DNA of 64,000 nt from Aliiroseovarius sp. S1123 (lineage in GTDB: Bacteria; Pseudomonadota; Alphaproteobacteria; Rhodobacterales; Rhodobacteraceae): NCBI RefSeq assembly GCF_023015885.1, contig NZ_JALKBE010000001.1, positions 434,001 to 498,000 of the forward strand. Direction: 5' to 3'. Under the pieces are notes generated by a model that was given only the letters and a program-made list of their open reading frames with translations, did not search any database and was not told the DNA's origin. The position numbers were made by a program, and so were the translations under genes. How positions within the stretch are numbered: the stretch's first letter is position 1; each line of letters begins with the position of its first letter. Positions 7,193 to 29,885 of the stretch are shown piece by piece.

Positions 7193-8026
7193 ATGAGCAC
7201 ACAATATTATGCACCGCAGGGGGGACTTCCCGCCCAGACTCAGCTTCTGACCGACCGGGCCGTATTCACGGATGCGTATGCGGTGATCCCGAAGGGGGTA
7301 ATGCAGGATATTGTGACCAGCTTTTTGCCCTTTTGGACGGGCACGCGGCTTTGGGTCCTGTCCCGCCCGCTGAGTGGCTTCGCCGAGACATTCTCGCAAT
7401 ACATCATGGAAGTGCAGCCGGGTGGAGGGTCTGACCGGCCCGAGGATGATCCAGACGCGCAGGCCGTGTTGTTTGTGGTCGAGGGCACCGCGACGTTGGA
7501 AGTGGCCGGGGGCGTTCATGAACTGACGCCGGGGGGCTATGCCTATCTGCCGCCTTCAGAACAATGGAAGTTGCACAACAAAGGCGACGAGGTGCTTCGA
7601 TTCCATTGGATCCGCAAAGCCTATCAGCGGGTCGAGGGGTTGGACGCACCCGATGTTCTGATCCTGAACGAAAACGACATCGCGCCCACGCCGATGCCGG
7701 ATACGGATGGCAAATGGGCGACGACGCGGTTTGTGGACCCGAACGACCTGCGCCATGACATGCATGTGACGATCGTGACGTTCGAGCCGGGCGGGGTCAT
7801 CCCATTTCTGGAAACCCATGTCATGGAACACGGTCTATACGTGCTGGAAGGCAAGGCGGCCTATCGCTTGAACCAAGATTGGGTCGAGGTCGAGGCCGGT
7901 GACTTCATGTGGCTGCGCGCGTTCTGCCCACAGGCCTGTTACGCGGGCGGGCCGGGGCGCTTCCGGTATCTGCTGTATAAGGATGTGAACCGCCATATGC
8001 CGTTGCGGCTGGGTGGCGGTCGCTAG
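7193..8026 (+). CDS. allE: (S)-ureidoglycine aminohydrolase (bicupin)
   Basis: The 277-residue product has two cupin folds (about 60-140 and 190-270), as in the allE/UGHY family. That family converts (S)-ureidoglycine, made from allantoate, into (S)-ureidoglycolate and ammonia. The manganese ligands of the C-terminal cupin are conserved: Glu207, His209 and His213 in ETHVMEH, and Gln247 in FCPQACYAGG. The ATG has GGAG five bases upstream. Its stop shares the four bases CTAG with the convergent bhcR stop. The position links late purine degradation to the bhc operon. The symbol is by family resemblance. Confidence 0.88.
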   Translation: MSTQYYAPQGGLPAQTQLLTDRAVFTDAYAVIPKGVMQDIVTSFLPFWTGTRLWVLSRPLSGFAETFSQYIMEVQPGGGSDRPEDDPDAQAVLFVVEGTATLEVAGGVHELTPGGYAYLPPSEQWKLHNKGDEVLRFHWIRKAYQRVEGLDAPDVLILNENDIAPTPMPDTDGKWATTRFVDPNDLRHDMHVTIVTFEPGGVIPFLETHVMEHGLYVLEGKAAYRLNQDWVEVEAGDFMWLRAFCPQACYAGGPGRFRYLLYKDVNRHMPLRLGGGR

Positions 8027-8868
8027 GACAGGTCTGGCGCGATCCCGCCGATGGCTTGGGTAAGCTCACGCGATGCGTCAATGACCGCGCGGCTTAACCG
8101 GTCGGTTTCGTTCTGGCCGACGCGGCTGGTGGGGCCCGAGACCGAAATCCCGGCGACCACTTCGTTGTTCATGTCAAAAACGGGCGCCGCTATGCACCGC
8201 ATCCCGGCGTTTTTCTCTTCATTGTCGATGGAAAAGCCCCGTGCACGGGTCTGCTCCAGATCCGCCCGAAGGTCTTCTGCTGTCGTGATCGTGTACTCGG
8301 TAAAGGTCTCGAACGCTGCTGTATCGAGCACCCGCTTCAACCGGTCGTCGTCCATATAGGCCAATATCGCTTTGCCTATGCCCGATGAGTGCATGGGCGA
8401 TAGTGAGCCGGGGGGGAAGAATGCGCGGATGTTGGCGTGGGTCTCGACCTGGCTCAGAAACAGAACAGACCCCTCCTTTTCAATGCCCAGGTTTGCTGTC
8501 TCTCCGGTGGTTTCCATCAGCTTGCGCAGAATGGGGCGGGCCCGGTCGACAAGGCTGGTGCGCCGCAGGAAGCGTGCGCCGATGACAAAAGCGCGTGCGC
8601 CGATGAACCAGACTTGCTCGACGGTGTCGAACTCGACCAGTCCGCGCGTTTCGAGCGTCACCAGAACCCGGTAAACCGTCGCGGGTGATTGCCCCATTTC
8701 TTCGGCAATCACCGACAAGGGTTTGCCCTGCGCCTCGCTCAGATGCTCGAAAACCTCCATCGCGCGATCAAGCGATTTGATCGTGTTCTGAGCGGTTTTG
8801 TCATGCCAGTCGCGGGGGCGTCCGCGGGCCTTGCGGGTGGGTGATGTGCTGTCTTTCTGAGATTCCAT
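8023..8868 (-). CDS. bhcR: IclR family regulator of the beta-hydroxyaspartate cycle
   Basis: The 281-residue product has an N-terminal winged helix (about 30-90; IAEEMGQSPATVYRVLVTLE) and a C-terminal IclR effector domain (about 105-275), including GIEKEGSVLFLSQVE and AGISVSGPTSRVG. It is divergent from bhcA. In Paracoccus the IclR-type BhcR at this place controls bhcABCD and responds to glyoxylate; the same role is inferred here from gene order and family. The 5' end lies beside an AT-rich 166-base regulatory region. Confidence 0.9.
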   Translation of the reverse strand: MESQKDSTSPTRKARGRPRDWHDKTAQNTIKSLDRAMEVFEHLSEAQGKPLSVIAEEMGQSPATVYRVLVTLETRGLVEFDTVEQVWFIGARAFVIGARFLRRTSLVDRARPILRKLMETTGETANLGIEKEGSVLFLSQVETHANIRAFFPPGSLSPMHSSGIGKAILAYMDDDRLKRVLDTAAFETFTEYTITTAEDLRADLEQTRARGFSIDNEEKNAGMRCIAAPVFDMNNEVVAGISVSGPTSRVGQNETDRLSRAVIDASRELTQAIGGIAPDLS

Positions 8869-8887
8869 AAAAACCCTCGCATTTTAA

Positions 8888-8904
8888 GTGAAAAATAAAT
8901 TCAC
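8888..8904. promoter_or_regulatory. Inverted repeat in the bhcR-bhcA control region
   Basis: GTGAA-N7-TTCAC forms a 17-base inverted repeat 20 bases upstream of the bhcR start. It is a candidate BhcR operator. This rests on symmetry and position only. Confidence 0.4.
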
Positions 8905-8907
8905 AAT

Positions 8908-8968
8908 ATGAAAAAGTCAATGGCTTGATAAATAACGTAAAAATCAACATCGTCAAAAATGAAAAAGT
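8908..8968. repeat. Direct repeat ATGAAAAAGT, two copies 51 bp apart
   Basis: The ten-base word ATGAAAAAGT occurs at 8908-8917 and again at 8959-8968, about five helical turns apart on the same face of the DNA. It lies in the AT-rich gap between bhcR and bhcA and may be part of the regulator binding region. AT richness makes chance repeats more likely. Confidence 0.35.
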
Positions 8969-9034
8969 ATTTCAAAAAAATATCCCTCGAAAATCGGGCC
9001 GGATAAAGTGGCCCCAATGACGAAGGAGAACCCC

Positions 9035-10228
9035 ATGAGTTTTCAGAACCCCGTTTTCATTCCGGGCCCGACCAACATCCCCGAAAGCCTGCGCAAGGCG
9101 TCCGACATGCCGACGATTGACCATCGTTCGCCGCTGTTCGGTCAGATCCTGCACCCGGCGCGCGCGGGCGTGAAGAAGATCCTGAAAAGCCAAACGGCCG
9201 AGGTCTTCATCTTCCCCTCCAGCGGCACGGGCGGCTGGGAAACGGCCCTGACCAACACGCTGTCCGCAGGTGACAAGATCCTTGCTGCGCGCAACGGCAT
9301 GTTTTCGCATCGTTGGATCGACATGTGTCAGCGCCACGGCCTGGATGTCACCATTGTTGAGACCCCGTGGGGTGAAGGTATTCCCGCAGATCGCTATGAA
9401 GAGATCCTGACCGCAGACAAAGGCCACCAGATCAAGGCGGTCTTGGCCACGCATAACGAAACCGCCACCGGCGTTAAGTCCGACATCGCAGCGGTGCGTC
9501 GCGCGCTGGACGCGGCTGGGCACCCGGCACTGCTGTTTGTCGATGGCGTAAGCTCGATCGCGTCGATGGATTTCCGCTTTGACGAGTGGGGCGTTGATGT
9601 TGCGGTAACGGGTTCCCAGAAAGGGTTCATGCTGCCCGCCGGTCTGGCCATCGTGGGCTTCAGCACCAAAGCGATGGAGGCGACCAAGACAGGCACATTA
9701 CCGCGCACGTTCTTTGACGTGCATGACATGGCGAAGGGCTATGCCAACAATGCCTATCCCTACACGCCTGCTGTGGGGCTGATGAATGGCCTGAACGAAT
9801 CCTGCAAAATGCTGCTGGATGAGGGGCTAGAGAACGTCTTTGCCCGCCACAACCGCATTGCGGAAGGTGTACGCGCCGCCGTGGGGGCGTGGGGGCTAGA
9901 GCTCTGTGCCGCATCCCCGAACGTCTATTCCGACACGGTCAGCGCCATCCGCACGCCTGCGCATTTCAACGCGACCGACATCGTAACATTGGCCGCCGAA
10001 AAATACGGCGTCGCCTTTGGTGTCGGGTTGGGAGAGGTCGCCGGAAAAGTGTTTCGCATTGGTCACTTGGGCAGCATGACCGACGTCATGGCCCTGTCAG
10101 GCATCGCGACGGCTGAGATGTGCATGGTTGATCTTGGTCTGGACATCACGCTGGGCCTCGGGGTTGCCACGGCGCAGGAATACTATCGTGGAAGCGCCGC
10201 CATGACCCAGCAAGAGGCTGCGGAATGA
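9035..10228 (+). CDS. bhcA: Aspartate-glyoxylate aminotransferase (BHAC)
   Basis: The 397-residue product is a class V PLP aminotransferase. In the beta-hydroxyaspartate cycle it moves the amino group of aspartate to glyoxylate, giving glycine and oxaloacetate. The PLP lysine is expected at Lys196 in TGSQKGFMLP, and the N-terminal FIPGPTNIPESLR and FPSSGTGGWE motifs are family-typical. A longer frame opens at a GTG at 9008, but the ATG at 9035 has AAGGAG (9023-9028) at the right distance. The order A-B-C-D with the IclR gene opposite matches the described operon exactly. Confidence 0.95.
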   Translation: MSFQNPVFIPGPTNIPESLRKASDMPTIDHRSPLFGQILHPARAGVKKILKSQTAEVFIFPSSGTGGWETALTNTLSAGDKILAARNGMFSHRWIDMCQRHGLDVTIVETPWGEGIPADRYEEILTADKGHQIKAVLATHNETATGVKSDIAAVRRALDAAGHPALLFVDGVSSIASMDFRFDEWGVDVAVTGSQKGFMLPAGLAIVGFSTKAMEATKTGTLPRTFFDVHDMAKGYANNAYPYTPAVGLMNGLNESCKMLLDEGLENVFARHNRIAEGVRAAVGAWGLELCAASPNVYSDTVSAIRTPAHFNATDIVTLAAEKYGVAFGVGLGEVAGKVFRIGHLGSMTDVMALSGIATAEMCMVDLGLDITLGLGVATAQEYYRGSAAMTQQEAAE

Positions 10229-10239
10229 AGGATACGCCG

Positions 10240-11190
10240 ATGTATATCCCCACCTTTGATGACATGCTGGAGGCGCACGCGCGCATCCGGCCCTACATCC
10301 GCCGCACACCGGTTCGGACCTCGGATTACCTGAACGAGCTGACCGGGGCCGAGCTGTTCTTCAAGTGTGAGAACTTTCAAGAACCGGGCGCGTTCAAGGT
10401 CCGCGGTGCCTCGAACGCGGTGTTCGGGTTGGATGATGAACAAGCCGCCAAGGGCGTTGCGACCCATTCGTCGGGCAACCATGCCTCTTGCCTGTCTTAT
10501 GCCGCGATGAAGCGGGGTATTCCGTGCAACGTGGTCATGCCGCGCACCGCGCCGCAGGCCAAGAAAGACACGGTGCGGCGATATGGGGGCAAGATCACAG
10601 AATGCGCGCCGTCGACCTCGTCGCGGGAAGAAACCTTTGCCCGTGTGCAAGCTGAAACCGGCGGTGATTTCGTGCACCCCTACAACGATCATCGCGTGAT
10701 CGCCGGGCAGGGAACCTGTGCGCGCGAGTTCATCGAGCAGACCGACGGTCTGGACGCCGTTGTTGCGCCCATCGGGGGGGGCGGCATGATCTCGGGCACC
10801 TGCCTGACGCTGTCGACCTTGGCGCCGGAAACGCAAGTGATCGCAGCCGAGCCCGAGCAGGCCGACGACGCCTATCGCAGCTTCAAGGCGGGGTACATCA
10901 TCGCCGACGATGCGCCCAAAACCATCGCGGATGGGCTGCTGGTGCCGCTGAAGGACCTGACCTGGCACTTCGTGTCGAACCACGTGAGCGAGATCTACAC
11001 CGCCTCGGATCCCGAAATCATCGACGCGATGAAGCTGATCTGGAAGCACCTGCGCGTGGTCATGGAGCCGTCCAGTGCCGTACCGCTCGCCACCATCTTG
11101 AAAAACCCCGACGCGTTCAAAGGCAAGCGCGTAGGCCTGATTATCACCGGCGGCAATGTCGATCTCGACCGCCTGCCGTGGACTCTGTGA
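10240..11190 (+). CDS. bhcB: erythro-beta-hydroxyaspartate dehydratase (BHAC)
   Basis: The 316-residue product is a fold-type II PLP enzyme of the serine/threonine dehydratase family. In the cycle it removes water from beta-hydroxyaspartate to give iminosuccinate. PLP is bound by Lys53 in PGAFKVRGASNA, and the phosphate loop is PIGGGGMISG. An ATG at 10225 overlaps the bhcA stop, but the ATG at 10240 is chosen because AAGGA stands seven bases before it and the protein then begins MYIPTFDDM. Sequence alone would also fit serine racemase; the operon settles the call. Confidence 0.93.
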   Translation: MYIPTFDDMLEAHARIRPYIRRTPVRTSDYLNELTGAELFFKCENFQEPGAFKVRGASNAVFGLDDEQAAKGVATHSSGNHASCLSYAAMKRGIPCNVVMPRTAPQAKKDTVRRYGGKITECAPSTSSREETFARVQAETGGDFVHPYNDHRVIAGQGTCAREFIEQTDGLDAVVAPIGGGGMISGTCLTLSTLAPETQVIAAEPEQADDAYRSFKAGYIIADDAPKTIADGLLVPLKDLTWHFVSNHVSEIYTASDPEIIDAMKLIWKHLRVVMEPSSAVPLATILKNPDAFKGKRVGLIITGGNVDLDRLPWTL

Positions 11191-11202
11191 AGGAGAATGA
11201 CA

Positions 11203-12366
11203 ATGAACGCAGTGACCAATTTCGATAACCTTATCGTTGGCTTTGACGTTCCGGCCCTGCCGGGTATGGACGAGGCTGACATCCAGACCCCCGCGCTTGT
11301 ACTGGATCTGGACGCGCTAGAGCGCAATATCAAGAAGATGGGCGACTATGCCAAGGCGCATGGGATGCGCCACCGGGTGCACGGGAAAATGCACAAGTCG
11401 GTGGATGTGGCCAAGCTGCAGGAAGAACTGGGCGGCGCGGTGGGTGTCTGCTGCCAGAAAGTGTCCGAAGCCGAGGTGTTCGTGCGCGGCGGCATCAAGG
11501 ACGTTCTGGTGTCGAACCAAGTGCGTGACCCGCTGAAAATCGACCGTCTGGCGCAGCTGCCGAAATTGGGCAGCCGGATCATCGTTTGTGTCGATGATCT
11601 GGACAATGTGGCCGATCTGTCGGCTGCCGCGCAGAAACACGGCACCCAGCTGGAAACCTTCATCGAGATCGACTGCGGCGCAGGTCGCTGCGGTGTGAAC
11701 TCGACCGCGGATGTGATCGAGATTGCCAAGGCGATTAACGCCGCCGACAACCTGAAATTTACCGGTATTCAGGCCTATCAGGGCGCGATGCAGCACCTTG
11801 ACACCTACGAGGCGCGCAAAGAGAAGCTGGACGTCGCCATCGGCATGGTGAAAGCTGCCGTTGATGGTCTGAAGTCAGAGGGCATCGCGTGCGAATTGGT
11901 CTCGGGCGGGGGCACAGGCTCCTACTATTTCGAGTCCAATTCGGGCGTGTATAACGAGCTGCAGTGCGGGTCTTACGCGTTCATGGATGCGGATTACGGC
12001 CGTATCCTCGACAAGGATGGCAACCGGATCGACCAGGGCGAATGGGAGAACGCATTTTTCATCCTGACCTCGGTGATGAGCCATACCAAGGCCGACAAGG
12101 CCATCGTCGACGCGGGACTGAAGGCGCAGTCGATTGACAGTGGTCTGCCCGTTGTCTTTGGACGAGATGATGTCGAATACATCAAATGCTCGGACGAACA
12201 TGGCGTGGTGTCTGATCCGGACGGCGCCCTGAAGGTCAACGACAAGCTGCGCCTTGTGCCGGGCCACTGTGATCCGACCGCCAACGTCCATGATTGGTAT
12301 GTGGGCGTGCGTGGCGGCAAGGTCGAAACCCTCTGGCCGGTCTCGGCACGCGGCAAGGCGTTTTAA
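11203..12366 (+). CDS. bhcC: beta-hydroxyaspartate aldolase (BHAC)
   Basis: The 387-residue product belongs to the fold-type III, D-threonine-aldolase-like PLP family. In the cycle it joins glycine and glyoxylate to form erythro-beta-hydroxyaspartate. The N-terminal PLP lysine is expected at Lys62 in HRVHGKMHKS. The C-terminal part has the metal-binding end of the family, with LVPGHCDPTANVHDWYVGVR. Two in-frame ATGs exist; 11203 is chosen because AGGAG (11191-11195) is seven bases before it and only one base before 11197. It is followed by a strong hairpin before bhcD. Confidence 0.94.
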   Translation: MNAVTNFDNLIVGFDVPALPGMDEADIQTPALVLDLDALERNIKKMGDYAKAHGMRHRVHGKMHKSVDVAKLQEELGGAVGVCCQKVSEAEVFVRGGIKDVLVSNQVRDPLKIDRLAQLPKLGSRIIVCVDDLDNVADLSAAAQKHGTQLETFIEIDCGAGRCGVNSTADVIEIAKAINAADNLKFTGIQAYQGAMQHLDTYEARKEKLDVAIGMVKAAVDGLKSEGIACELVSGGGTGSYYFESNSGVYNELQCGSYAFMDADYGRILDKDGNRIDQGEWENAFFILTSVMSHTKADKAIVDAGLKAQSIDSGLPVVFGRDDVEYIKCSDEHGVVSDPDGALKVNDKLRLVPGHCDPTANVHDWYVGVRGGKVETLWPVSARGKAF

Positions 12367-12381
12367 GGAACCTCTGAGGTT

Positions 12382-12397
12382 GGCCCGGTGACGGGCC
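12382..12397 (+). other. Small GC hairpin after bhcC
   Basis: GGCCCG-GTGA-CGGGCC makes a 6-bp stem with a four-base loop 15 bases after the bhcC stop. It may shield the 3' end of the bhcABC message, in series with the larger hairpin that follows. Confidence 0.4.
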
Positions 12398-12412
12398 TAA
12401 CCCTCCTGAACT

Positions 12413-12442
12413 GGGTGGAGCGTCACGCTCCACCCGCTTTTT
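12413..12442 (+). terminator. Rho-independent attenuator between bhcC and bhcD
   Basis: GGGTGGAGCG (12413-12422) and CGCTCCACCC (12426-12435) form a perfect 10-bp stem with a three-base loop, followed by GC and five T. This is an intrinsic-terminator shape inside the operon, 14 bases before the bhcD start. It probably lowers bhcD transcript relative to bhcABC. Confidence 0.7.
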
Positions 12443-12456
12443 CAAAGGACACAGAC

Positions 12457-13422
12457 ATGTATATCGTTCCAGAACGCGAGATTGCGGGCCTCATGACCCG
12501 CGAGGCCGCCTTTAGCGCGGTGGAACAAGTTTTCGCGGCGATGGCGTCGGGGGATGCCTATAATTTCTCGGTGATCCGCGAGGCGATTGGCCACGAAGAT
12601 GCGCTTTATGGCTTCAAAGGTGGGTTCGATCAGGCCGGGCTGACTTTGGGGCTGAAGGCTGGTGGCTATTGGCCCAACAATCTGGAAAAGCGCGGGATCA
12701 TCAATCACCAGTCAACCGTATTCCTGTTTGACCCAGACACCGGCAAGGCCAAGGCGATGGTGGGGGGGAACCTGTTGACTGCTCTGCGTACCGCCGCGGC
12801 GTCGTCCGTTTCGATCAAGCACCTTGCACGCGAAGATGCGAAGGTGATCGGTATGATCGGTGCGGGCCATCAGGCCACGTTCCAGCTTCGCGCCGCACTT
12901 GAGCAGCGGTCATTTGAAAAGGTGATCGGCTGGAACCTGCATCCCGAGATGCTGCCCAACCTTGCGAAGGTTGCCGCCGAAGCTGGACTGCCCTTTGAGG
13001 CAGTCGAACTGGATGGCATGACCGAGGCAGACGTGATCATCTCGATCACCTCGTCCTTCGATGCCATTCTTGGTGCAGGCCAAGTCAACCCCGGCACGCA
13101 CATCGCCTGCATGGGCACCGACACCAAAGGCAAGCAAGAGGTCGATCCGCAGCTTCTGGTCAAGGCGGATGTTTTCACGGATGAAGTGGCGCAGTCCATC
13201 ACAATCGGCGAAGCGCAGCACGCCGTGGGGCAGGGACTGATTCAAGAAAGTGACGTGGCGCAGATCGGCGCGGTGATTAACGGGACCAATCCGGGGCGGA
13301 GCTCGGACGATCAGATCACGCTGTTTGATGGCACCGGTGTTGGGCTGCAGGACCTTGCCGTGGCGTCGTCGGTCGTAGAGCTTGCGATCGAGAAAGGCAT
13401 CGCCATCGAAGTCGATTTCTGA
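12457..13422 (+). CDS. bhcD: Iminosuccinate reductase (BHAC)
   Basis: The 321-residue product belongs to the ornithine cyclodeaminase/mu-crystallin family. In the cycle it reduces iminosuccinate with NADH to regenerate aspartate. A Rossmann motif is seen as IGMIGAGHQATFQ near residue 130, and the family segment CMGTDTKGKQEVDPQLL follows. An upstream in-frame GTG at 12388 would place the terminator hairpin inside the coding region. The ATG at 12457 with AAAGGA before it is therefore preferred. Confidence 0.93.
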   Translation: MYIVPEREIAGLMTREAAFSAVEQVFAAMASGDAYNFSVIREAIGHEDALYGFKGGFDQAGLTLGLKAGGYWPNNLEKRGIINHQSTVFLFDPDTGKAKAMVGGNLLTALRTAAASSVSIKHLAREDAKVIGMIGAGHQATFQLRAALEQRSFEKVIGWNLHPEMLPNLAKVAAEAGLPFEAVELDGMTEADVIISITSSFDAILGAGQVNPGTHIACMGTDTKGKQEVDPQLLVKADVFTDEVAQSITIGEAQHAVGQGLIQESDVAQIGAVINGTNPGRSSDDQITLFDGTGVGLQDLAVASSVVELAIEKGIAIEVDF

Positions 13423-13445
13423 TCGGGCACACAAATCCAGACAGC

Positions 13446-13474
13446 GCCCGCCCGGTTCTCCGTGGCGGGCGTTT
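13446..13474. terminator. Terminator after bhcD
   Basis: GCCCGCC (13446-13452) pairs with GGCGGGC (13464-13470), followed by GTTTT. It ends the bhc operon and overlaps the 3' end of the convergent LysR gene. Confidence 0.7.
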
Positions 13475-14394: not shown

Positions 14395-14454
14395 TGGGGT
14401 TCCTTACTTTTCTCAAGTCAGTTTGGTGCCGCTTGCGCCCATTATAGCCATTAT

Positions 14455-14469
14455 CAACGATTTGTTGAA
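14455..14469. promoter_or_regulatory. Inverted repeat in the xdhA promoter region
   Basis: TCAAC-GATTT-GTTGA is a perfect inverted repeat 93 bases upstream of the xdhA start, between it and the divergent LysR gene. Size and place suit a LysR-type site, but the bases differ from the palindromes before puuD. Confidence 0.4.
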
Positions 14470-14561
14470 AGTATTTTCCAAAAGACATCATTTTTCCGTG
14501 CAGTCATCCGCCGTAAGCTCACCTTCATACCCGCCCACGCGGGATAGGTTTGGGAGGCCTC

Positions 14562-18362: not shown

Positions 18363-18366
18363 TCCG

Positions 18367-22359: not shown

Positions 22360-22388
22360 CATCTTGTTCGACTTTGTCGATCCCAGCT

Positions 22389-23807
22389 TTAATCGCCTTT
22401 TGGCAGCGATCCCTGACCGCGACCGGCCAACCCACCCGAGACTTCCTCGGTCGACTCGTCCGACAGTTCTTCCGGAAGGATCAAGTTCAGCACAATCGCA
22501 ATCGCAGCAGCAGGCAGAATGCCCGATGTTGCCAGAACCTTGATCGTGGACGGCAGATGCTGCAGCGCACCCGGCTCCAGCTGAAGGCCAAGCCCCAGCG
22601 ACAGCGAGATGGCAAAGATCACCATGTTACGACGGTTCCAGTCGACATCCGACAGCATCGAGATACCAGCCGAGGCCACCATGCCGAACATCACGATCAC
22701 ACCGCCGCCCAGGACTTCGATCGGAATCGACGAGATGATTGCCCCAATCTTGGGGACAAGCCCGGCAAGGATCAGGAAGATCGCACCGATGGTCACCACG
22801 TGACGGCTCATCACGCCGGTCATGGCGATCAGGCCCACGTTCTGGCTGAAGGATGTGTTGGGCAGAGCACCGAACAGACCAGAGATAGCGGTGCCAAGAC
22901 CGTCGGCATAGGTTGCACCTTGGATCTCGGTGTCGGTGGCTTCACGTCCGGCACCACCTTTGGTGATCCCCGACACGTCGCCTACGGTTTCCACCGCGGA
23001 TACGAAGGACATCAGGCAGAACCCGATTATCGCAGCGACCGAGAACTCGACGCCGAAGTGGAAGGGGTTCGGAAGCGCGAAGGGCGCTGCGCGTCCGACG
23101 TTGCCAAGGTTCACCTCGCCCGCGGCGAAGGCAAATACATAGCCCACGAGCAGACCGATCAGAACCGCGGATACTGACAGCATACCGCGGGTATAGAACT
23201 TCAGGCCGAGCGTGACGAAGATCACGACCAGCGCCATCGACCAATTCATCAGAGATCCATATTCAGGCTTGCCGATCGCTGGAACGCCACCCGCTGCATA
23301 CTGAATGCCGACCTTGACCAGAGCCAGACCGATCATTGTCACTACAAGGCCCGTGACCAGAGGTGGTAAGGCAAAACGGATCCTGCCGATGAACAGGCCT
23401 AGGAACGCATGGAACAAGCCCCCCACGATGATCCCGCCCATCAAGACTGCGATCGCATCGACCCCTTTGCCCGCAACCAACGGGATCATGATCGGGATGA
23501 ACGCGAAAGATGTACCCTGTACAATCGGCAAGCGGGCGCCAACCGGGCCAAGGCCGATGGTCTGGATCAGGGTTGCGACACCTGCAAAGAACATCGACAT
23601 CTGGATCATATAGATCATCTGCGGAAAATCCGGGCTGTTCGAGCCGAACCCAAACCCGGCGGCCCCGCAGACGATGATCGCCGGGGTGACGTTAGATACG
23701 AACATTGCCAGCACGTGCTGGATGCCCAAGGGCACTGCCTTGGCAAGTGGTGGTGTGTAGTTGGGATCGCGCAGCTGCTCTGGCGTCCCGATGGATGTGT
23801 TAGCCAT
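22389..23807 (-). CDS. NCS2 family xanthine/urate:cation symporter
   Basis: The 472-residue product has about 12-14 membrane helices and the nucleobase-ascorbate transporter signature. The segment SQNVGLIAMTGVMSRHV carries the QN.G....TG pattern seen in xanthine and urate carriers, in contrast to uracil carriers. It follows allA and the allantoinase fusion on the same strand and is likely their operon partner. Xanthine or urate import is inferred from the signature and the neighbours. Confidence 0.88.
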   Translation of the reverse strand: MANTSIGTPEQLRDPNYTPPLAKAVPLGIQHVLAMFVSNVTPAIIVCGAAGFGFGSNSPDFPQMIYMIQMSMFFAGVATLIQTIGLGPVGARLPIVQGTSFAFIPIMIPLVAGKGVDAIAVLMGGIIVGGLFHAFLGLFIGRIRFALPPLVTGLVVTMIGLALVKVGIQYAAGGVPAIGKPEYGSLMNWSMALVVIFVTLGLKFYTRGMLSVSAVLIGLLVGYVFAFAAGEVNLGNVGRAAPFALPNPFHFGVEFSVAAIIGFCLMSFVSAVETVGDVSGITKGGAGREATDTEIQGATYADGLGTAISGLFGALPNTSFSQNVGLIAMTGVMSRHVVTIGAIFLILAGLVPKIGAIISSIPIEVLGGGVIVMFGMVASAGISMLSDVDWNRRNMVIFAISLSLGLGLQLEPGALQHLPSTIKVLATSGILPAAAIAIVLNLILPEELSDESTEEVSGGLAGRGQGSLPKGD

Positions 23808-23855
23808 TATTATTCCTCCCTATGGTGCCGGATCGCTTCCTCCTTCGATCCGGCT

Positions 23856-24344
23856 TTATGGCGTCTCGATTCTGATTTCCTCCTTGAACCAGTGTTCCTG
23901 TAGGTTCGGCCCCGTGCCGATCCTGTCGATCACCGCAAACTGTCCCTGTTCTGTCAGGGGTGCGCAGACCCCATGCCAGGTGTTGCGATGGTAGTTCACG
24001 CCCTGTCCGGGGGCGGCGATGAAGGCCACGGGCGTTCCCGGCTGGCCGCCCGCGTCCGGGGCAACGACGACTAGGTACGGTGCGCGGCTGATCGGAATGA
24101 ACGCTTGGCTGCCGTCCGGGTGGCGCTCCACCATGTCCAGCACCATCGGCAAGCTACGTGCTTCGGCGTCAAAGATGCTGATCCCAGCTTGCCCGTCAGA
24201 GAAATCAAGCGTCGCACGGTCATGATACCGCCCGCAAAGCCCCTGATTGATCATCTTGTCAGGCGCGCCCGCGGTGTCGAGCACGTCACCAAACGGTGCG
24301 AAGGCCTCGGGCGTCAGGGGAAGGGGGGTGATTGACAGGGTCAT
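23856..24344 (-). CDS. allA: Ureidoglycolate lyase
   Basis: The 162-residue product matches AllA, which splits (S)-ureidoglycolate into glyoxylate and urea. Family motifs are FAPFGDVLD near the N-terminus, ERHPDGSQAFIPIS in the middle and NYHRNTWHGVCAPL near the C-terminus. Its ATG overlaps the stop of the allantoinase fusion (ATGA). The glyoxylate it makes is the substrate of BhcA and BhcC encoded 11 kb to the left. Confidence 0.94.
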   Translation of the reverse strand: MTLSITPLPLTPEAFAPFGDVLDTAGAPDKMINQGLCGRYHDRATLDFSDGQAGISIFDAEARSLPMVLDMVERHPDGSQAFIPISRAPYLVVVAPDAGGQPGTPVAFIAAPGQGVNYHRNTWHGVCAPLTEQGQFAVIDRIGTGPNLQEHWFKEEIRIETP

Positions 24345-25753
24345 GCGGCGAACTTCTCGTCCAGACGAATTTCAGCGATCCGCTCGACCTGTCGGCAGGC
24401 CTCGGCGAATTCGGTGTCGCGGTCATTGCCGATCCGGCGATGGAACGCCTCCAGAATGCTGGGCTTGGTGTTGTCCTTCACCGCGATGATGAAGGGGAAG
24501 CCGTGCTTGGTGGTGTACGCCTCGTTGAGTTTCGTGAAGGTCGCGCGTTCGTCGTCGGTCAACATGTCCAGACCGGCACCGGCCTGTTCGGATGTGCTTT
24601 CTGCGGTCAACCGTCCAGCGGCGGCCAGTTTTCCGGCCAAGTCAGGGTGCGCCACCAGCACGCCCAAGCGCGCCTCTTCGCTGGCGCTGCGGAATACGCG
24701 GGCCAAGGCGTTGTGCACGCCTGCGGCCGTGTCATGGGTTGGTCCCAGCTCCAGACCAAATGCGCCCTCGGCAATCCAGGGGCTGTGTTCAAACACGCCG
24801 CCGAACTCGCCCACGAATGTCTCTTGGTCCATTTCGGACGGTTTCAATCCCTGCATTGGGGGGTGCTCCTTGGCCCAGTGATCGGCGATCTGTTCGCGGG
24901 TGGCGAACCAGACGCCGTCATGTGATCTGAAGTGGTCGATGATACGTTTCAGCGCCACGGCCCGGCCCGGACGTCCGATCAGGCGGCAATGCAGGCCGAT
25001 GGACAGGATCTTGGGCGCGCCTGCTTCCCCTTCCGCATAGAGCATGTCGAAACTGTCTTTCAGGTAGCTCTCGAACTGATCGCCATTGGTGTATCCTGCC
25101 TGGATCGCAAAGCGCATGTCGTTGCAGTCCATCGTGTAGGGAACTACCAGTTGATCCTTGCCGCCGGCATGGATCCAATAGGGCAGGTCATCTGCGTAAC
25201 TGTCTGCGATATAGGCGAAATCACCTTCTTCGGCGGCCAAGTCCATCGTGTTCATTGAACAGCGACCGGTGTACCAGCCACGCGGGGCCGTGCCAGTGAC
25301 TTCGGTGTGCAGGCGGATCGCTTCGCGGATCTGTGCCCGTTCTTCGTCTGCCGACATATCCTTATGTTCGACCCATTTCAGACCGTGGCTCGCGATCTCC
25401 CAGTTTGAGGCCTTCATCGCCTTAAGCTGCTCCGGCGCGCGGGCCAAAGCCGTGGCCACGCCATAGACCGTGACAGGCAGGTCCTGAAGAAGACGATGCA
25501 CGCGCCAGAACCCGGCACGCGATCCGTATTCATAGATGGATTCCATGTTCCAATGGCGCTGCCCCAGCCATGGCTGTGCCCCGGTGATCTCAGACAGGAA
25601 AGCTTCGGAAGCTGCGTCGCCATGCAGGACACAGTTCTCGCCGCCCTCTTCATAGTTCAGGACGATCTGAACGGCGATCTTTGCGTCGCCGGGCCATCTG
25701 ACGACCGGAGGGGTGGCTCCGTATCCGGTCATGTCTCGTGGGTATCGTGTCAC
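24341..25753 (-). CDS. puuE-uraD: Fused allantoinase (PuuE type) and OHCU decarboxylase (UraD)
   Basis: The 470-residue product joins two enzymes. Residues 1-300 are a cofactor-light allantoinase of the polysaccharide deacetylase type (RYPRDMTGYG, LNYEEGGENC and SHGLKWVEH), which opens allantoin to allantoate. Residues 303-470 are UraD, which decarboxylates OHCU to (S)-allantoin, with the expected catalytic His323 in FEHSPWIAEGAF. The steps are consecutive, UraD first. The start is a GTG at 25753, because residues 1-8 are the conserved beginning of PuuE; an ATG at codon 8 lacks a ribosome binding site. Confidence 0.93.
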   Translation of the reverse strand: MTRYPRDMTGYGATPPVVRWPGDAKIAVQIVLNYEEGGENCVLHGDAASEAFLSEITGAQPWLGQRHWNMESIYEYGSRAGFWRVHRLLQDLPVTVYGVATALARAPEQLKAMKASNWEIASHGLKWVEHKDMSADEERAQIREAIRLHTEVTGTAPRGWYTGRCSMNTMDLAAEEGDFAYIADSYADDLPYWIHAGGKDQLVVPYTMDCNDMRFAIQAGYTNGDQFESYLKDSFDMLYAEGEAGAPKILSIGLHCRLIGRPGRAVALKRIIDHFRSHDGVWFATREQIADHWAKEHPPMQGLKPSEMDQETFVGEFGGVFEHSPWIAEGAFGLELGPTHDTAAGVHNALARVFRSASEEARLGVLVAHPDLAGKLAAAGRLTAESTSEQAGAGLDMLTDDERATFTKLNEAYTTKHGFPFIIAVKDNTKPSILEAFHRRIGNDRDTEFAEACRQVERIAEIRLDEKFAA

Positions 25754-25916
25754 GTGGTTTCCCTTTGTTTGTCTTGGGTGTCATTCTAAGGCGAAAATCC
25801 GCGCGCACTTTCAAATTAATCAAGAAGGATTGTTCGGCAGTCTGGCTCTGTGTGCGTCTGCGCTTACAGACTAATAAGAGGGTGCCAAGCAAAAGCCCAA
25901 ATAGGAGACACCGAAG

Positions 25917-26270
25917 ATGACAGGCTACCTGACCACGCATGTGCTTGATACCGCCCGCGGGTGTCCCGCAGAGGGGTTGAAGATCGAGCTGTTTCGGCTT
26001 GATGGCACTGCGCGCAGCTTGCTGAAGACGCTGGTGACAAATGATGATGGGCGGACCGATGAACAGATCCTACCCGCCGAGAAGTTTGAGACCGGCGAAT
26101 ACGAGCTTGTCTTCTATGCAGGGGACTATCTGGACAGCATCGGCATTCCGCCTGAAGCGCCCCGGTTCCTAAATGTGATCCCGCTGCGTTTCGGCATGTC
26201 CGAGGCGTCGCATTATCACGTGCCACTGCTTCTATCGCCCTTCGGCTATTCCACCTACCGCGGCAGCTGA
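25917..26270 (+). CDS. uraH: 5-hydroxyisourate hydrolase
   Basis: The 117-residue product is a transthyretin-like enzyme that hydrolyses 5-hydroxyisourate, the product of urate oxidation, to OHCU. It has the conserved GYLTTHVLDTARGCPAEG start and ends with the hallmark tetrapeptide YRGS. It is divergent from the puuE-uraD fusion and convergent with the LysR gene, whose stop is two bases away. It sits between the genes for the steps before and after it. Confidence 0.96.
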   Translation: MTGYLTTHVLDTARGCPAEGLKIELFRLDGTARSLLKTLVTNDDGRTDEQILPAEKFETGEYELVFYAGDYLDSIGIPPEAPRFLNVIPLRFGMSEASHYHVPLLLSPFGYSTYRGS

Positions 26271-26272
26271 GC

Positions 26273-27190
26273 CTAGCCCCGCTCCGTGCTGCGGATGCTG
26301 GTCGCGATCCGGTCGATCACGAACTCCATAAACAGTCGTGACTTGGGGTCCTGACCGCGACGGTGGGTGAACAAACAGGCCATCTGGATCGGCTCGGGCG
26401 GGGTTTCGGTGGCGACGGGCACCAGTCGCCCCGATTTCAGGTGTTCCGAAATCTCGAATACCGGCTTCATCGCGATGCCGTTTCCACCCAGCGCCCAATC
26501 GGTCAGCACGTCCCCGTCGTCCGATTCATATCGCCCGGTCACGCGAAAGCGCTTCGGGCCGTCTTTCGTGGTCAGAAGCCACTGGAACTCGGTCGCGCCG
26601 GGGAAGCGCAGGTTCAGGCATTCATGCCCATTGTTGATCAGGTCGTCGCCGTTTTGCGGCATGCCGCGTTGCTTAATATACTCAGGGGTCGCGCAGAGAA
26701 CCCGTTCTACGTCAGCAATCTTGCGGATCTTAAGGTTGCTATCTTCCGGTTGTCCTAAGAAGAACGCCAGATCGAGCCCCTCGGTCGTCAGGTCCACTTT
26801 GCGGTCGGTCATACGAAGACGCACGCTGACTTCCGGATACTTTTTCAAAAAGTCTGGGACCAAGGGGGCGATCAGACGGCGCCCGACGCCCAAAGGGGCG
26901 GCGACATAGAGCGGTCCCTTGGGGTTATCCGTAATATCAACGATTTGCGCCTCGGCGTTTTCGACGGCTTCCAAGATCTCAGTCGCACCGCGATAGAACC
27001 TTTCGCCCTGTTCGGTCGGGGCCAAGCTACGCGTGGTGCGCTGGAACAGCCGAACGCCCAGATAATCTTCCAACTGAGAGATGCGCGAGGAGGTCACCGC
27101 AGGGGACACCCGAAGGTCGCGCCCCGCAGCCGACATGCTGCCAAGCTCATAGACACGGACAAAGGTTCGGATGTTGGCGAGATAGGACAT
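26273..27190 (-). CDS. LysR family regulator, divergent from puuD
   Basis: The 305-residue product has an N-terminal helix-turn-helix (residues 3-62, GRDLRVSPAVTSSRISQLE) and a sensor domain (about 90-290). It is about half identical by eye to the LysR protein divergent from xdhA, so the two arose by duplication. Its promoter region, shared with puuD, holds clear palindromes. It probably regulates urate oxidation and perhaps its own gene. Confidence 0.9.
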   Translation of the reverse strand: MSYLANIRTFVRVYELGSMSAAGRDLRVSPAVTSSRISQLEDYLGVRLFQRTTRSLAPTEQGERFYRGATEILEAVENAEAQIVDITDNPKGPLYVAAPLGVGRRLIAPLVPDFLKKYPEVSVRLRMTDRKVDLTTEGLDLAFFLGQPEDSNLKIRKIADVERVLCATPEYIKQRGMPQNGDDLINNGHECLNLRFPGATEFQWLLTTKDGPKRFRVTGRYESDDGDVLTDWALGGNGIAMKPVFEISEHLKSGRLVPVATETPPEPIQMACLFTHRRGQDPKSRLFMEFVIDRIATSIRSTERG

Positions 27191-27214
27191 TGTTCTGTTT
27201 TTCTTGATGCTGCT

Positions 27215-27235
27215 TGGTATTTAGCAGCAATACCA
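27215..27235. promoter_or_regulatory. Candidate LysR binding site upstream of puuD
   Basis: TGGTATT-N7-AATACCA is a perfect 21-base inverted repeat midway between the LysR and puuD starts. Size and position fit a LysR recognition site. Confidence 0.6.
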
Positions 27236-27242
27236 GAATAAA

Positions 27243-27268
27243 TATGCTTAGCATAGAGTGTCGCTAAG
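27243..27268. promoter_or_regulatory. Second palindrome cluster upstream of puuD
   Basis: TATGCT-T-AGCATA (27243-27255) is a perfect 13-base palindrome. Overlapping it, CTTAGC (27247-27252) and GCTAAG (27263-27268) form another inverted repeat with a ten-base spacer. Lying 20-45 bases before the puuD ATG, it could be the activation site next to the recognition site. Confidence 0.45.
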
Positions 27269-27288
27269 ACGAATAGTGGAGGTATGCC

Positions 27289-28521
27289 ATGTACGACTTG
27301 GCAATTTTGTGGGACTGGATCGCGTTTTCTGTGCGGTGGCTGCACGTCATCACTGCAATGGCGTGGATTGGTGCGTCGTTCTATTTCATCGCGCTTGATC
27401 TGATGCTGAAACCCAATCCCAATCTGCCCGAAGGCGCCTATGGCGAGGAGTGGGAAGTGCACGGAGGTGGGTTCTATCACACGGTCAAATACCTTGTGGC
27501 TCCATCAGAAATGCCCGAGCATCTGACATGGCATAAATGGCAAAGCTACACGACTTGGCTGTCGGGCGCGGCGTTGCTGATGATCATCTATTGGGTCGGG
27601 GGCGAGCTGTTCCTTCTGGACCCCACCAAGGCAGACTTGGCCTTGTGGCAGGGCATCCTGATCTCGGGCGGATCGCTGACCATCGGGTGGCTGCTCTATG
27701 ACCAGATGTGCAAATCGAAGCTGAGCGAGAACCCAACGCTTCTGATGCTGCTGTTGTTTGTGATCCTTGTGGCGATGTCCTGGGGCTATAGCCAGATTTT
27801 CACTGGGCGTGCGGCGCTACTGCATCTGGGAGCGTTTACGGCGACCATCATGACGGCAAACGTGTTCTTCCAGATCATGCCCAACCAGCGCATCGTTGTG
27901 GCGGACCTGAAGGCCGGGCGGACGCCGGATTCGAAATACGGCAAGATCGCCAAGGTACGCTCGACCCATAACAACTATCTGACCTTGCCGGTCGTGTTCC
28001 TGATGCTGGCGAACCACTATCCACTGGCGTTTGGGACCCAGTATTCCTGGATTATCGCCAGCCTGATTTTCCTGACCGGCGTCACCATCCGTCACTACTT
28101 CAACACCATGCATAAGACCGGCAAAGGGCCGAATTGGACGTGGTTGGTGACCGTACTGCTAATGATTTTGATCGCATGGCTATCGACGATGCGCGCCGGG
28201 GAAACATACGAAGAATCCGAGGCACGCGCATTGACACCCTATGAGCAGACATTTGCCTCGGCCGATGGGTTCGAAGACGCATATTTTGCTGTGGTCGGGA
28301 ACTGCTCGATGTGCCACGCCCGAGAGCCGTCATGGGATGGCATGTACTGGGCGCCGAAAGGGGTGGTTCTGGAAACGGAAGCAGACGTCGCGCGTCACGC
28401 CAAGCAGGTCTATCTGCACGCAGGTGCGTCCCACGCCATGCCCCCGCCCAATGCGATCGAGATGGATCAGGAAGGTCGCGACTATATCGTGGCGTGGTAT
28501 CAAGGCGCCACGTCCAACTAA
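27289..28521 (+). CDS. puuD: Membrane urate oxidase with cytochrome c domain
   Basis: The 410-residue product matches PuuD, which oxidises urate to 5-hydroxyisourate. Residues 1-320 hold about eight membrane helices of the family, starting DWIAFSVRWLHVITAMAWIG. The C-terminal domain is a cytochrome c with the haem motif CSMCH at 339-343 and a likely Met384 ligand in HAMPPPN. Electrons thus probably enter the respiratory chain and no peroxide forms. GGAGG stands before the ATG. Confidence 0.95.
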   Translation: MYDLAILWDWIAFSVRWLHVITAMAWIGASFYFIALDLMLKPNPNLPEGAYGEEWEVHGGGFYHTVKYLVAPSEMPEHLTWHKWQSYTTWLSGAALLMIIYWVGGELFLLDPTKADLALWQGILISGGSLTIGWLLYDQMCKSKLSENPTLLMLLLFVILVAMSWGYSQIFTGRAALLHLGAFTATIMTANVFFQIMPNQRIVVADLKAGRTPDSKYGKIAKVRSTHNNYLTLPVVFLMLANHYPLAFGTQYSWIIASLIFLTGVTIRHYFNTMHKTGKGPNWTWLVTVLLMILIAWLSTMRAGETYEESEARALTPYEQTFASADGFEDAYFAVVGNCSMCHAREPSWDGMYWAPKGVVLETEADVARHAKQVYLHAGASHAMPPPNAIEMDQEGRDYIVAWYQGATSN

Positions 28522-28550
28522 GGGCGCGGCGCGCTTTTCCTACTTGTACC

Positions 28551-29885
28551 TCAGGATCGGAGCGCCAGGGCCAGTTGGTTCTGGCGCTCGATCACTTTCG
28601 GAAGGTCGACGGTCGCCATCTGACCATCCCGTACGACCTGCCGCCCTTCAACGAACAGATGTTTGACCCGTGTCGGACCGGCAAGCAGCAAGGCTGCGGG
28701 AACCCAGCTTCCGGCACTTTCGATGCCGGATACATCCCAAACCGCGATATCTGCCCGTTTGCCGACCGCCAACCGTCCACAATCATCGCGGCCAAGAACA
28801 TCCGCACCCCCACGGGTGGCGATCTCTAACGCTTCGCGGGCGGACATGGCATCAGCCCCGTTGGCCACGCGCTGCAGCAGCATGGATTGGCGCGCTTCCA
28901 AGATCAGGTTCCCCGCGTCATTGCTGGCGGACCCGTCGACACCCAGACCCACCGGCACACCCGCATCACGCATCTGGCGCACAGGGGCGATCCCGCTGCC
29001 CAAACGGCAGTTCGAGCACGGGCAATGCGCAACACCGGTCTTGCTGCGTGCAAAGAGGTCGATCTCTTGCCCATCAAGCTTCACACAATGGGCATGCCAG
29101 ACGTCATCCCCGGTCCAGCCAAGGTCCTCGGCATATTGACCGGGGCGGCAGCCGAATTTCTCTAAAGAATAGGCAATGTCTTCATCGTTCTCGGCCAGAT
29201 GGGTGTGAAGCATGACGCCCTTGTCACGCGCCAGTAGGGCGGCGTCGCGCATCAAGTCTCGGCTGACCGAGAAGGGAGAGCACGGGGCAAGCCCGACACG
29301 GACCATCGCCCCGTCGCGATCGTCGTGGAACGCATCGACCACGCGGATGGAATCCTCCAGGATAGCGCTTTCCTTCTCGACCAGACTGTCCGGGGGCAGC
29401 CCCCCGTCGCTTTCCCCGATGCTCATCGCGCCGCGCGTCGGGTGGAACCGCAGCCCGACCTCTTGCGCGGCGGCGATCGTGTCGTCCAGCCGCGCGCCGT
29501 TGGGATAGAGATACAGGTGGTCCGAGCTGAGCGTGCAGCCAGACAGCGCGAGTTCCGCCAACCCCACTTGGGCCGAGATAAACATCTCTTCCGGGCCAAA
29601 GCGGGACCAGATCGGATAGAGCGTCTGAAGCCAGCCAAACAGCAAGGCGTCTTGTCCACCCGGCACTGCGCGAGTCAGGGTCTGATAAAGGTGATGATGT
29701 GTGTTCACCAATCCGGGTGTCACGACGCAGCCACGTACGTCATGGATGTCGCCGTCGCTTCTCAGCCCCGTGCCAATTTCGGCAATTACACCGTTGCGCA
29801 CCCGGATATCAGCGCCCGACAGCTCGGTCCTTGTGTCATCCATCGTCAGGATGGTGTCTGCATTTCGAATAAGAATTTCGGTCAT
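28551..29885 (-). CDS. Probable 8-oxoguanine deaminase (amidohydrolase)
   Basis: The 444-residue product is an amidohydrolase of the TrzN/AtzA/8-oxoguanine deaminase group. It has the metal motif THHHLYQTL (His63, His65), HTHLAENDEDIAY near 230 and GLGVDGSASNDAGN near 320. In this group 8-oxoguanine deaminase gives urate and ammonia, which fits the place beside puuD. The frame is open further upstream to 30029, but the ATG at 29885 gives the normal length. Specificity within the group is inferred from context. Confidence 0.85.
   Translation of the reverse strand: MTEILIRNADTILTMDDTRTELSGADIRVRNGVIAEIGTGLRSDGDIHDVRGCVVTPGLVNTHHHLYQTLTRAVPGGQDALLFGWLQTLYPIWSRFGPEEMFISAQVGLAELALSGCTLSSDHLYLYPNGARLDDTIAAAQEVGLRFHPTRGAMSIGESDGGLPPDSLVEKESAILEDSIRVVDAFHDDRDGAMVRVGLAPCSPFSVSRDLMRDAALLARDKGVMLHTHLAENDEDIAYSLEKFGCRPGQYAEDLGWTGDDVWHAHCVKLDGQEIDLFARSKTGVAHCPCSNCRLGSGIAPVRQMRDAGVPVGLGVDGSASNDAGNLILEARQSMLLQRVANGADAMSAREALEIATRGGADVLGRDDCGRLAVGKRADIAVWDVSGIESAGSWVPAALLLAGPTRVKHLFVEGRQVVRDGQMATVDLPKVIERQNQLALALRS

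What the first reader, a model, noticed from the sequence alone, without database searches (positions are those of the whole stretch)
7193..29885. Purine degradation and the beta-hydroxyaspartate cycle in one block: a purine-to-oxaloacetate route
The block codes for guanine, xanthine and probable 8-oxoguanine conversion to urate, then PuuD, UraH, UraD, PuuE, AllE and AllA down to glyoxylate, and for BhcABCD, which turns two glyoxylate into oxaloacetate. The cycle was described for glycolate assimilation by marine bacteria. Physical linkage to purine breakdown suggests it also lets cells use purine carbon, not only nitrogen. I do not know of this link being highlighted.
Basis: partly seen in the sequence, partly recalled or inferred. 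Interest (0 to 1): 0.75.

Follow-up and report, generated by a model that had tools for sequence, protein, structure and literature searches.

The report
Purine-breakdown cluster carrying hydroxyaspartate cycle genes
In this marine bacterium, and recurrently in its relatives, the genes that take purines apart down to glyoxylate sit beside the genes that turn glyoxylate into a central carbon compound, which suggests that these bacteria eat the carbon of purines as well as the nitrogen.

Summary
Observation confirmed: window 7193-29885 encodes GuaD, 8-oxoguanine deaminase, XdhABC, PuuD, UraH, PuuE-UraD, AllA, AllE, BhcR and BhcABCD, each over its curated cut-off. The enzyme that opens allantoate is unsettled; two candidates exist.

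The linkage recurs: two or more purine genes near a bhcB-bhcC locus in 21 of 53 other genera of the family, 42 of 80 named loci, 10 of 10 Paracoccus loci among them, and 2 of 17 loci from a class-wide sample. It is scattered over the bhc tree (17 changes, 13 forced). Glycolate oxidase GlcD lies in 1 of 165 bhc neighbourhoods. No glyoxylate carboligase passes its cut-off in 120 genera.

Best reading: the BHAC stands where E. coli and Pseudomonas have the gcl genes, as the assimilating end of purine catabolism. Against tight co-regulation: the BhcR-type box precedes bhcA but not purine genes. Expression and growth were not testable. New variant of a known kind.

The parts
7193..8026 (+). allE, (S)-ureidoglycine aminohydrolase (cupin); also matches NCBIfam NF040771 'bifunctional allantoicase/(S)-ureidoglycine aminohydrolase'
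   Evidence: 536 vs 445; 511 vs 350; nearest solved chain 1sq4, 479 bits
8023..8868 (-). bhcR, IclR-family regulator of the BHAC
   Evidence: 393.5 vs 350; AllR model 142 vs 406, not met
8889..8903 (+). BhcR-type box, distal copy (TGAAAN5TTTCA, 1 mismatch)
8960..8974 (+). BhcR-type box, proximal copy (exact), 48 bases before bhcA
   Evidence: exact in 75 of 133 and within 1 mismatch in 100 of 133 bhcA upstream regions of fetched loci; 1.3 expected for the latter in base shuffles; the pattern was read off these same sequences
9008..10228 (+). bhcA, aspartate-glyoxylate aminotransferase
   Evidence: 748 vs 650
10225..11190 (+). bhcB, beta-hydroxyaspartate dehydratase
   Evidence: 583 vs 550
11197..12366 (+). 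bhcC, beta-hydroxyaspartate aldolase
   Evidence: 762 vs 690; 6qkb
12388..13422 (+). bhcD, iminosuccinate reductase
   Evidence: 585 vs 500; 6rqa
13474..14394 (-). LysR-family regulator, divergent from xdhA
   Evidence: family-level similarity only, no cut-off reached
14550..16025 (+). xdhA, xanthine dehydrogenase small subunit
16038..18362 (+). xdhB, xanthine dehydrogenase molybdopterin subunit
18337..19218 (+). xdhC, xanthine dehydrogenase accessory protein (start uncertain)
19287..20870 (+). conserved membrane protein, putative permease, without a Pfam or NCBIfam family; beside xdhC or guaD in relatives
   Evidence: no family; 71-93% identity to 11 homologues; context
20958..22310 (+). guaD, guanine deaminase
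   Evidence: 561 vs 375
22389..23807 (-). pbuX-type xanthine permease (NCS2)
   Evidence: 436 vs 414
23856..24344 (-). allA, ureidoglycolate lyase (glyoxylate + urea)
   Evidence: 266 vs 260
24341..25753 (-). puuE-uraD fusion: allantoinase plus OHCU decarboxylase
25917..26270 (+). uraH, hydroxyisourate hydrolase
   Evidence: 122 vs 87
26273..27190 (-). LysR-family regulator, divergent from puuD
   Evidence: family-level similarity only
27289..28521 (+). puuD, membrane urate hydroxylase with C-terminal CxxCH motif
   Evidence: (434 vs 26.9)
28551..29885 (-). 8-oxoguanine deaminase (longest ORF to 30029; start at 29885 likely)
   Evidence: (681 vs 532)

Best explanation
The block is a purine-catabolic gene cluster whose glyoxylate-assimilating end is the beta-hydroxyaspartate cycle. 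Guanine, 8-oxoguanine and xanthine are converted to urate (GuaD, 8-oxoguanine deaminase, XdhABC), urate to allantoin (PuuD, UraH, UraD), allantoin to allantoate (PuuE), and through ureidoglycine and ureidoglycolate to glyoxylate and urea (AllE, AllA). BhcA aminates one glyoxylate to glycine with aspartate, giving oxaloacetate; BhcC joins glycine to a second glyoxylate; BhcB and BhcD rebuild aspartate. The net product is one oxaloacetate from two glyoxylate, hence from two purines, without loss of glyoxylate carbon. The BHAC stands in the place that gcl-hyi-glxR-glxK holds in the E. coli and Pseudomonas allantoin systems, with BhcR in the place of AllR. Shown here: gene content, recurrent linkage, no Gcl over cut-off. 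Inferred: enzyme activities (from families), flux, induction by purine-derived glyoxylate, growth on purine carbon. Open: which enzyme opens allantoate.
For: All enzymes over curated cut-offs or gathering score. Two or more purine genes near a bhcB-bhcC locus in 21 of 53 other genera, 42 of 80 named loci, and 2 of 17 class-wide loci, both outside the family. Several gene orders and 17 label changes on the bhcABCD tree, 13 forced by starred branches, so the linkage was made, broken or kept many times. GlcD in 1 of 165 bhc neighbourhoods; AllE within 10 kb of bhcC in 19 of 50 genera, GlcD in 0 of 50, AllE-GlcD 0 as control. Gcl over cut-off in 0 of 120 genera, E. coli control positive. E. coli has the same design with gcl; P. 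aeruginosa gcl-cluster mutants cannot grow on allantoin as sole carbon source (PMC12694930, abstract and passages). In P. denitrificans glyoxylate raises bhc promoter activity and BhcR is needed for it (PMC11323563 section 5); AllA would supply that glyoxylate.
Against: Many bhc loci are not linked to purine genes (32 of 53 genera, one of these with allE alone; seven of the unlinked loci are on stretches under 15 kb). The BhcR-type box is before bhcA but not before purine genes: within 1 mismatch AllE 0 of 50, PuuE 0 of 50, XdhA 0 of 20, PuuD 0 of 47, AllA 0 of 49, PbuX 0 of 39, GuaD 0 of 15, 8-oxoguanine deaminase 0 of 7, UraH 1 of 53; the window's own xdhA near-match at 14466 is not found in the other 20. 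No allantoicase and no AllC equivalog in the genome, so one step rests on family names. Malate synthase G is present and could take glyoxylate with acetyl-CoA. A glcDEF-like operon lies elsewhere in the genome, so the same bhc genes very probably serve glycolate too. On the tree the linked label is also somewhat clustered. No expression or growth data.
Confidence: 0.8

Rival explanations
1. Purines are used for nitrogen only. The BHAC is there to remove toxic or excess glyoxylate, or to serve glycolate, and the linkage reflects shared need for glyoxylate handling rather than carbon growth on purines.
For: A glcDEF-like operon is in the genome; GlcD-like matches are in all 120 genera, none over the curated cut-off, the best one above 400 bits in 111 of 120. 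Purine ring carbon is mostly lost as CO2 and urea (pathway knowledge). Glyoxylate toxicity was postulated for E. coli on allantoin (PMC12694930 discussion passage). bhc is not linked to two or more purine genes in 32 of 53 genera.
Against: bhc is almost never beside glcD (1 of 165 loci). Detoxification would need fewer steps than a four-gene carbon-conserving cycle (inference). In P. aeruginosa the gcl-cluster mutants grew on glucose plus allantoin, which argues for a carbon role of that equivalent module.
Confidence: 0.15
2. Neighbourhood without function: bhc and purine genes are merely close on a shared ancestral or mobile segment.
For: Linked loci are somewhat clustered on the bhc tree (17 changes against a shuffled mean of 23.1, 7 of 500 shuffles as low).
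Against: At least 13 forced changes, several different gene orders, recurrence in records named Stappia, Fulvimarina and Nitratireductor and in two further families of the class sample, and a lone bhcC directly behind allE in four genera.
Confidence: 0.05
3. Purine-derived glyoxylate goes mainly to malate synthase G in the glyoxylate/TCA cycle, with the BHAC a side route.
For: Malate synthase G is present in the own genome, 1016 vs 989 bits.
Against: Malate synthase needs acetyl-CoA and gives no net assimilation from glyoxylate alone (pathway knowledge); the bhc genes, not glcB (on another contig, C14), are in the cluster.
Confidence: 0.1

Closest known systems
Beta-hydroxyaspartate cycle of Paracoccus denitrificans (bhcR-bhcABCD)
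   Same: Same four enzymes and regulator over curated cut-offs, bhcR divergent from bhcA, conserved boxes in the bhcR-bhcA intergenic region.
   Different: Studied there for glycolate (PMC11323563: passages and section 5); here embedded in purine genes. Whether P. denitrificans itself is linked was not seen; all 10 Paracoccus loci among the 80 named ones are.
E. coli K-12 allantoin/glyoxylate cluster (allS-allA-allR-gcl-hyi-glxR-allW-allB-ybbY-glxK / allE-allC-allD)
   Same: Allantoin genes beside a glyoxylate-assimilation module and an IclR-family regulator; BhcR is reported as a close sister group to the IclR/AllR clade (PMC11323563 section 5).
   Different: Glycerate pathway (Gcl) instead of the BHAC; allantoinase AllB instead of PuuE; no xanthine or urate enzymes in the stretch seen; [quoted passage not shown]
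Pseudomonas aeruginosa gcl cluster PA1498-PA1502
   Same: Dedicated assimilation of allantoin-derived glyoxylate as carbon, shown with mutants (PMC12694930 abstract and passages).
   Different: Gcl route to pyruvate; the glycerate pathway loses one CO2 per two glyoxylate (PMC11323563 introduction passage).
Ruegeria pomeroyi DSS-3 xanthine catabolism (Cunliffe 2016, doi 10.1093/femsec/fiv150)
   Same: Marine relative using xanthine; the paper is cited for xdhABC (SPO0652-0654) in PMC9038784 (passages).
   Different: Paper not held. From recall only: growth on xanthine as carbon and nitrogen source, glyoxylate named as an intermediate; I do not recall a BHAC assignment.

Membership tests
Beta-hydroxyaspartate cycle | BhcA, BhcB, BhcC, BhcD all above curated cut-offs | tested here: met
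Beta-hydroxyaspartate cycle | bhcR divergent from bhcABCD, BhcR over cut-off | tested here: met
   coordinates 8023-13422
Beta-hydroxyaspartate cycle | Conserved palindromic site in the bhcR-bhcA intergenic region | tested here: met
   exact in 72 of 119 intergenic regions, 0.04 expected by base shuffling; pattern read off the same sequences; window has one exact and one 1-mismatch copy. Binding by BhcR not tested
Beta-hydroxyaspartate cycle | Two glyoxylate to oxaloacetate in vivo | not testable with these tools
   no enzyme or growth assay
Oxidative purine degradation to glyoxylate | Xanthine to urate to allantoin (XdhABC, PuuD, UraH, UraD) | tested here: met
   (family level)
Oxidative purine degradation to glyoxylate | Allantoin to allantoate (PuuE) and ureidoglycolate to glyoxylate (AllA) | tested here: met
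   (family level)
Oxidative purine degradation to glyoxylate | Dedicated allantoate amidohydrolase (AllC) or allantoicase | tested here: inconclusive
   No allantoicase, AllC equivalog model 208 vs 598; an M20 protein elsewhere passes a subfamily model named allantoate amidohydrolase (650 vs 452) but lies by a dihydropyrimidinase; AllE passes NF040771
E. coli-type allantoin/gcl regulon | Glyoxylate carboligase | tested here: not met
   own best 338 vs cut-off 711
E. coli-type allantoin/gcl regulon | AllR regulator | tested here: not met
   142 vs 406 for the AllR model; BhcR model met instead
E. coli-type allantoin/gcl regulon | Regulator site shared by glyoxylate and allantoin genes | tested here: not met
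   BhcR-type box not found before purine genes (consensus scan only)

The most novel reading that the evidence does not exclude
In Alphaproteobacteria the BHAC is, by ancestry and main selection, the carbon-conserving end of purine catabolism, recruited where gcl is missing, and its use for glycolate is secondary and in trans. The lone bhcC placed directly behind allE in four genera of the family (three of them, those searched for BhcB, have none over cut-off) would be a reduced or earlier form in which the aldolase alone takes up purine-derived glyoxylate with glycine.
Probability: 0.25. Interest if true: 0.75.

Novelty: new variant of a known kind. Interest (0 to 1): 0.55.

Why it matters
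It gives the BHAC, known as a glycolate pathway, a second natural source of glyoxylate, and predicts that many roseobacters and Paracoccus species can grow on purine carbon by a carbon-conserving route, returning nitrogen as ammonia and urea. Purines are exuded and used by abundant ocean microbes (PMC11698098, start of abstract and passages), so the fate of their carbon matters for the marine carbon and nitrogen budget. The prediction is directly testable with bhc deletion strains.

Tried and rejected
Shared BhcR control of purine genes: not supported. One search had a slicing fault for genes cut by contig ends; one search is the corrected run and alone is used. A weak excess of 2-mismatch boxes before AllE (8 of 50 vs 2.3 in shuffles), PuuE (10 of 50 vs 4.0), UraH (13 of 53 vs 3.5) and PbuX (4 of 39 vs 1.0) is left as inconclusive.

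Mutual exclusion of Gcl and BhcC across the class: 8 and 13 of 385 genomes over cut-off with no genome in common, but only about 0.3 in common would be expected by chance, so nothing is claimed.

Identity of the family-less permease: no Pfam match at E up to 10 beyond a weak, sub-cut-off DUF2499 stretch, no credible solved relative, predicted model at mean pLDDT 38, so no fold search was run.

Allantoate step: one search scanned the wrong strand of L180 and found nothing; one search is the right strand. I first took the lack of AllC as pointing to a bifunctional AllE; the M20 hit reopens that. Allantoicase occurs in 2 of 120 genera, both among the 11 without an AllE match (Fisher p 0.008), which fits AllE covering the same step but does not prove it.

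The lone-bhcC tree has long branches meeting and is not used beyond its counts of rows. The bhcABCD tree is a quick one with SH-aLRT support only; up to 14 of its rows are named loci that I picked by hand, and L081 (allE alone) was labelled linked.
Full report
Observation. Scores against curated cut-offs are in the observation check. The order is allE, bhcR (reverse), bhcABCD, LysR (reverse), xdhABC, permease, guaD, then on the reverse strand pbuX, allA and puuE-uraD, then uraH, LysR (reverse), puuD, and 8-oxoguanine deaminase (reverse). The nearest named record is Aliiroseovarius marinus (98% identity in BhcC, the same gene order from allE to guaD, where the fetched stretch ends). The window lies in a 3.23 Mb assembly, contig C11.

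Completeness of the route. From guanine, 8-oxoguanine and xanthine to allantoate each step has a gene in the block. Ureidoglycine to glyoxylate is covered by AllE and AllA. The step that opens allantoate is not settled. The genome has no allantoicase and no AllC equivalog (208 against 598). One M20 protein on another contig passes a subfamily model named allantoate amidohydrolase (650 against 452) but sits next to a dihydropyrimidinase (482 against 393), so it may belong to pyrimidine breakdown. AllE itself passes NF040771, 'bifunctional allantoicase/(S)-ureidoglycine aminohydrolase' (511 against 350); this is a family name, not a test. Allantoicase occurs in 2 of 120 genera, both without an AllE match.

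Is the linkage more than local? In one genome from each of 120 genera of the family, BhcC is over cut-off in 51 and BhcB in 53. I fetched up to 20 kb around each of the 67 BhcC matches above 360 bits other than the window's own, plus one more contig (G079:C55), 68 loci in all, and mapped the window proteins on them at 40% identity or more. Five stretches (G100, G002, G089, G036, G088) were shifted towards purine genes already seen; on the maps each of the five still has two or more purine genes within 10 kb of bhcC. Apart from the window itself, 53 genera hold a bhcB locus; 21 of them have two or more purine genes in the stretch, and one more (G066) has allE alone. Seven of the unlinked loci are on stretches under 15 kb, so 21 may be an undercount. 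The purine genes themselves are common (XdhB over cut-off in 116 of 120, AllE in 83 of 120), so presence alone would not give linkage. Among the best 80 of 590 named relatives, 42 loci have two or more purine genes, 40 of them among the 74 with all four bhc genes; this set is biased to near relatives, overlaps the first (for instance L112 and L053 appear to be one contig) and holds two loci of one genome (L138, L139). It includes Ruegeria, Shimia, Leisingera, Roseovarius, Stappia, Fulvimarina, a Nitratireductor MAG and 10 of 10 Paracoccus loci. Not linked are, for example, both Marinobacterium records, Roseovarius nubinhibens, the four Mameliella records, and a second type of bhc in Ruegeria whose BhcA is about 60% identical to the window's. 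In the class sample 13 of 385 genomes have BhcC over cut-off (3 of them in the window's family); of 17 loci fetched, 11 over and 6 under the cut-off, 2 are linked, both outside the family.

Orders differ: allE-bhcR-bhcABCD-pbuX-allA-puuE-uraH-LysR-puuD in many genera; xdhABC-permease-guaD in front of allE or bhcR in others; the xdh group between bhcD and pbuX in the window; allE moved behind allA (L034, L048, L131, L133, L140); several Paracoccus with allE and puuE in front of bhcR. On a tree of joined BhcABCD proteins (69 rows, 33 linked, the window and L081 with allE alone counted as linked) the label needs 17 changes, 13 forced by starred branches; the shuffled mean is 23.1 and 7 of 500 shuffles are as low, so the label is also somewhat clustered. 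The tree cannot tell gains from losses.

Contrast with glycolate. The own glcD lies on another contig (C18); the ORFs behind it I read as glcE and glcF by eye. A GlcD at 54% identity is found in 1 of 165 bhc neighbourhoods (L186); three further loci have hits at 23-24%. By position, AllE is within 10 kb of bhcC in 19 of 50 genera, GlcD in 0 of 50, and AllE and GlcD are within 10 kb of each other in none (best GlcD match per genome only). At 50 kb the counts are 20, 1 and 2. GlcD matches in the family all fall below the curated cut-off, so the name GlcD there rests on score level.

No Gcl. Glyoxylate carboligase is over cut-off in 0 of 120 genera, the best match 354 against 711, in the range of related thiamine enzymes such as acetolactate synthase (my reading); E. 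coli passes. Malate synthase G is present in the own genome.

Regulation. A 15-base box TGAAAN5TTTCA, read off the bhcR-bhcA regions themselves, is exact in 72 of 119 of them against 0.04 by base shuffling. It is not found before purine genes (figures under evidence against). The window has one near-match 84 bases before xdhA (14466), with no counterpart within 1 mismatch in the 20 xdhA upstream regions tested elsewhere. In P. denitrificans BhcR is needed for bhc expression, which rises with glyoxylate (PMC11323563 section 5). So the simplest coupling is metabolic: purine breakdown makes glyoxylate, glyoxylate turns on bhc. The two LysR genes beside xdhA and puuD are the likely purine regulators (inference).

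Comparison. E. coli has allA-allR-gcl-hyi-glxR next to allB, glxK and allE-allC-allD, and one paper states that glyoxylate-use genes are often found with allantoin genes, data not shown (PMC10163214, passages). P. aeruginosa needs its gcl cluster to grow on allantoin carbon (PMC12694930, abstract and passages). The present block works like these but is not a member: Gcl and AllR were tested and not met. It is a variant with another assimilation module.

In print. Searches for BHAC or bhc terms with purine terms and for purine use by Rhodobacteraceae or R. pomeroyi gave no title or abstract start that reports the link, among the rows listed (5 of 5, 20 of 46, 21 of 21, 20 of 181, 15 of 96; none found, 5 of 5, 20 of 24). 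Of the five papers I read passages and one section of one (PMC11323563), which names purines and allantoin as sources of glyoxylate in its introduction; the other four I saw only in the listing. PMC7574528 uses the term hydroxyaspartate but not purine, xanthine or allantoin. The founding BHAC paper and the R. pomeroyi xanthine paper are not held. So I can say only that I did not find it.

Lone bhcC. In four genera of the family a bhcC without bhcB nearby lies directly behind allE (L083, L091, L096, L192); in three of them (G025, G072, G097, within the 120 searched) no BhcB is over cut-off in the genome; the fourth, G141, was not searched for BhcB and shows no other purine gene in its stretch. 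Twelve other lone bhcC rows are not near purine genes. I have no mechanism for the lone form.

Noticed in passing
window 19287-20870: A membrane protein 71-93% identical to 11 homologues, beside xdhC or guaD in relatives, passes no Pfam or NCBIfam family: a candidate uncatalogued purine permease.
   Followed up: partly
L083, L091, L096, L192 (genomes G025, G097, G072, G141): A lone bhcC directly behind allE; in G025, G097 and G072 no BhcB is over cut-off in the genome.
   Followed up: partly
L071/L072 (G055) and L051/L052 (G099): Two bhc clusters in one genome, one linked to the purine cluster; the second G055 cluster has only fragmentary allE matches beside it.
   Followed up: no
G011 and G063 of the 120-genus sample: The only two genomes of 120 with allantoicase are two of the eleven without an AllE match.
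   Followed up: partly
window 301-4056: narH, narJ and narI of respiratory nitrate reductase over cut-offs, followed by a protein with sub-cut-off similarity to peptidylprolyl isomerases.
   Followed up: no
window 33417-36206, 41627-42625, 44893-46983: Aconitase B (Pfam), a type I GAPDH and a transketolase lie downstream of the block.
   Followed up: no
G000:C11:20927-23179: A second XdhB-like gene over cut-off (1193.5 bits) in the own genome, outside the window.
   Followed up: no
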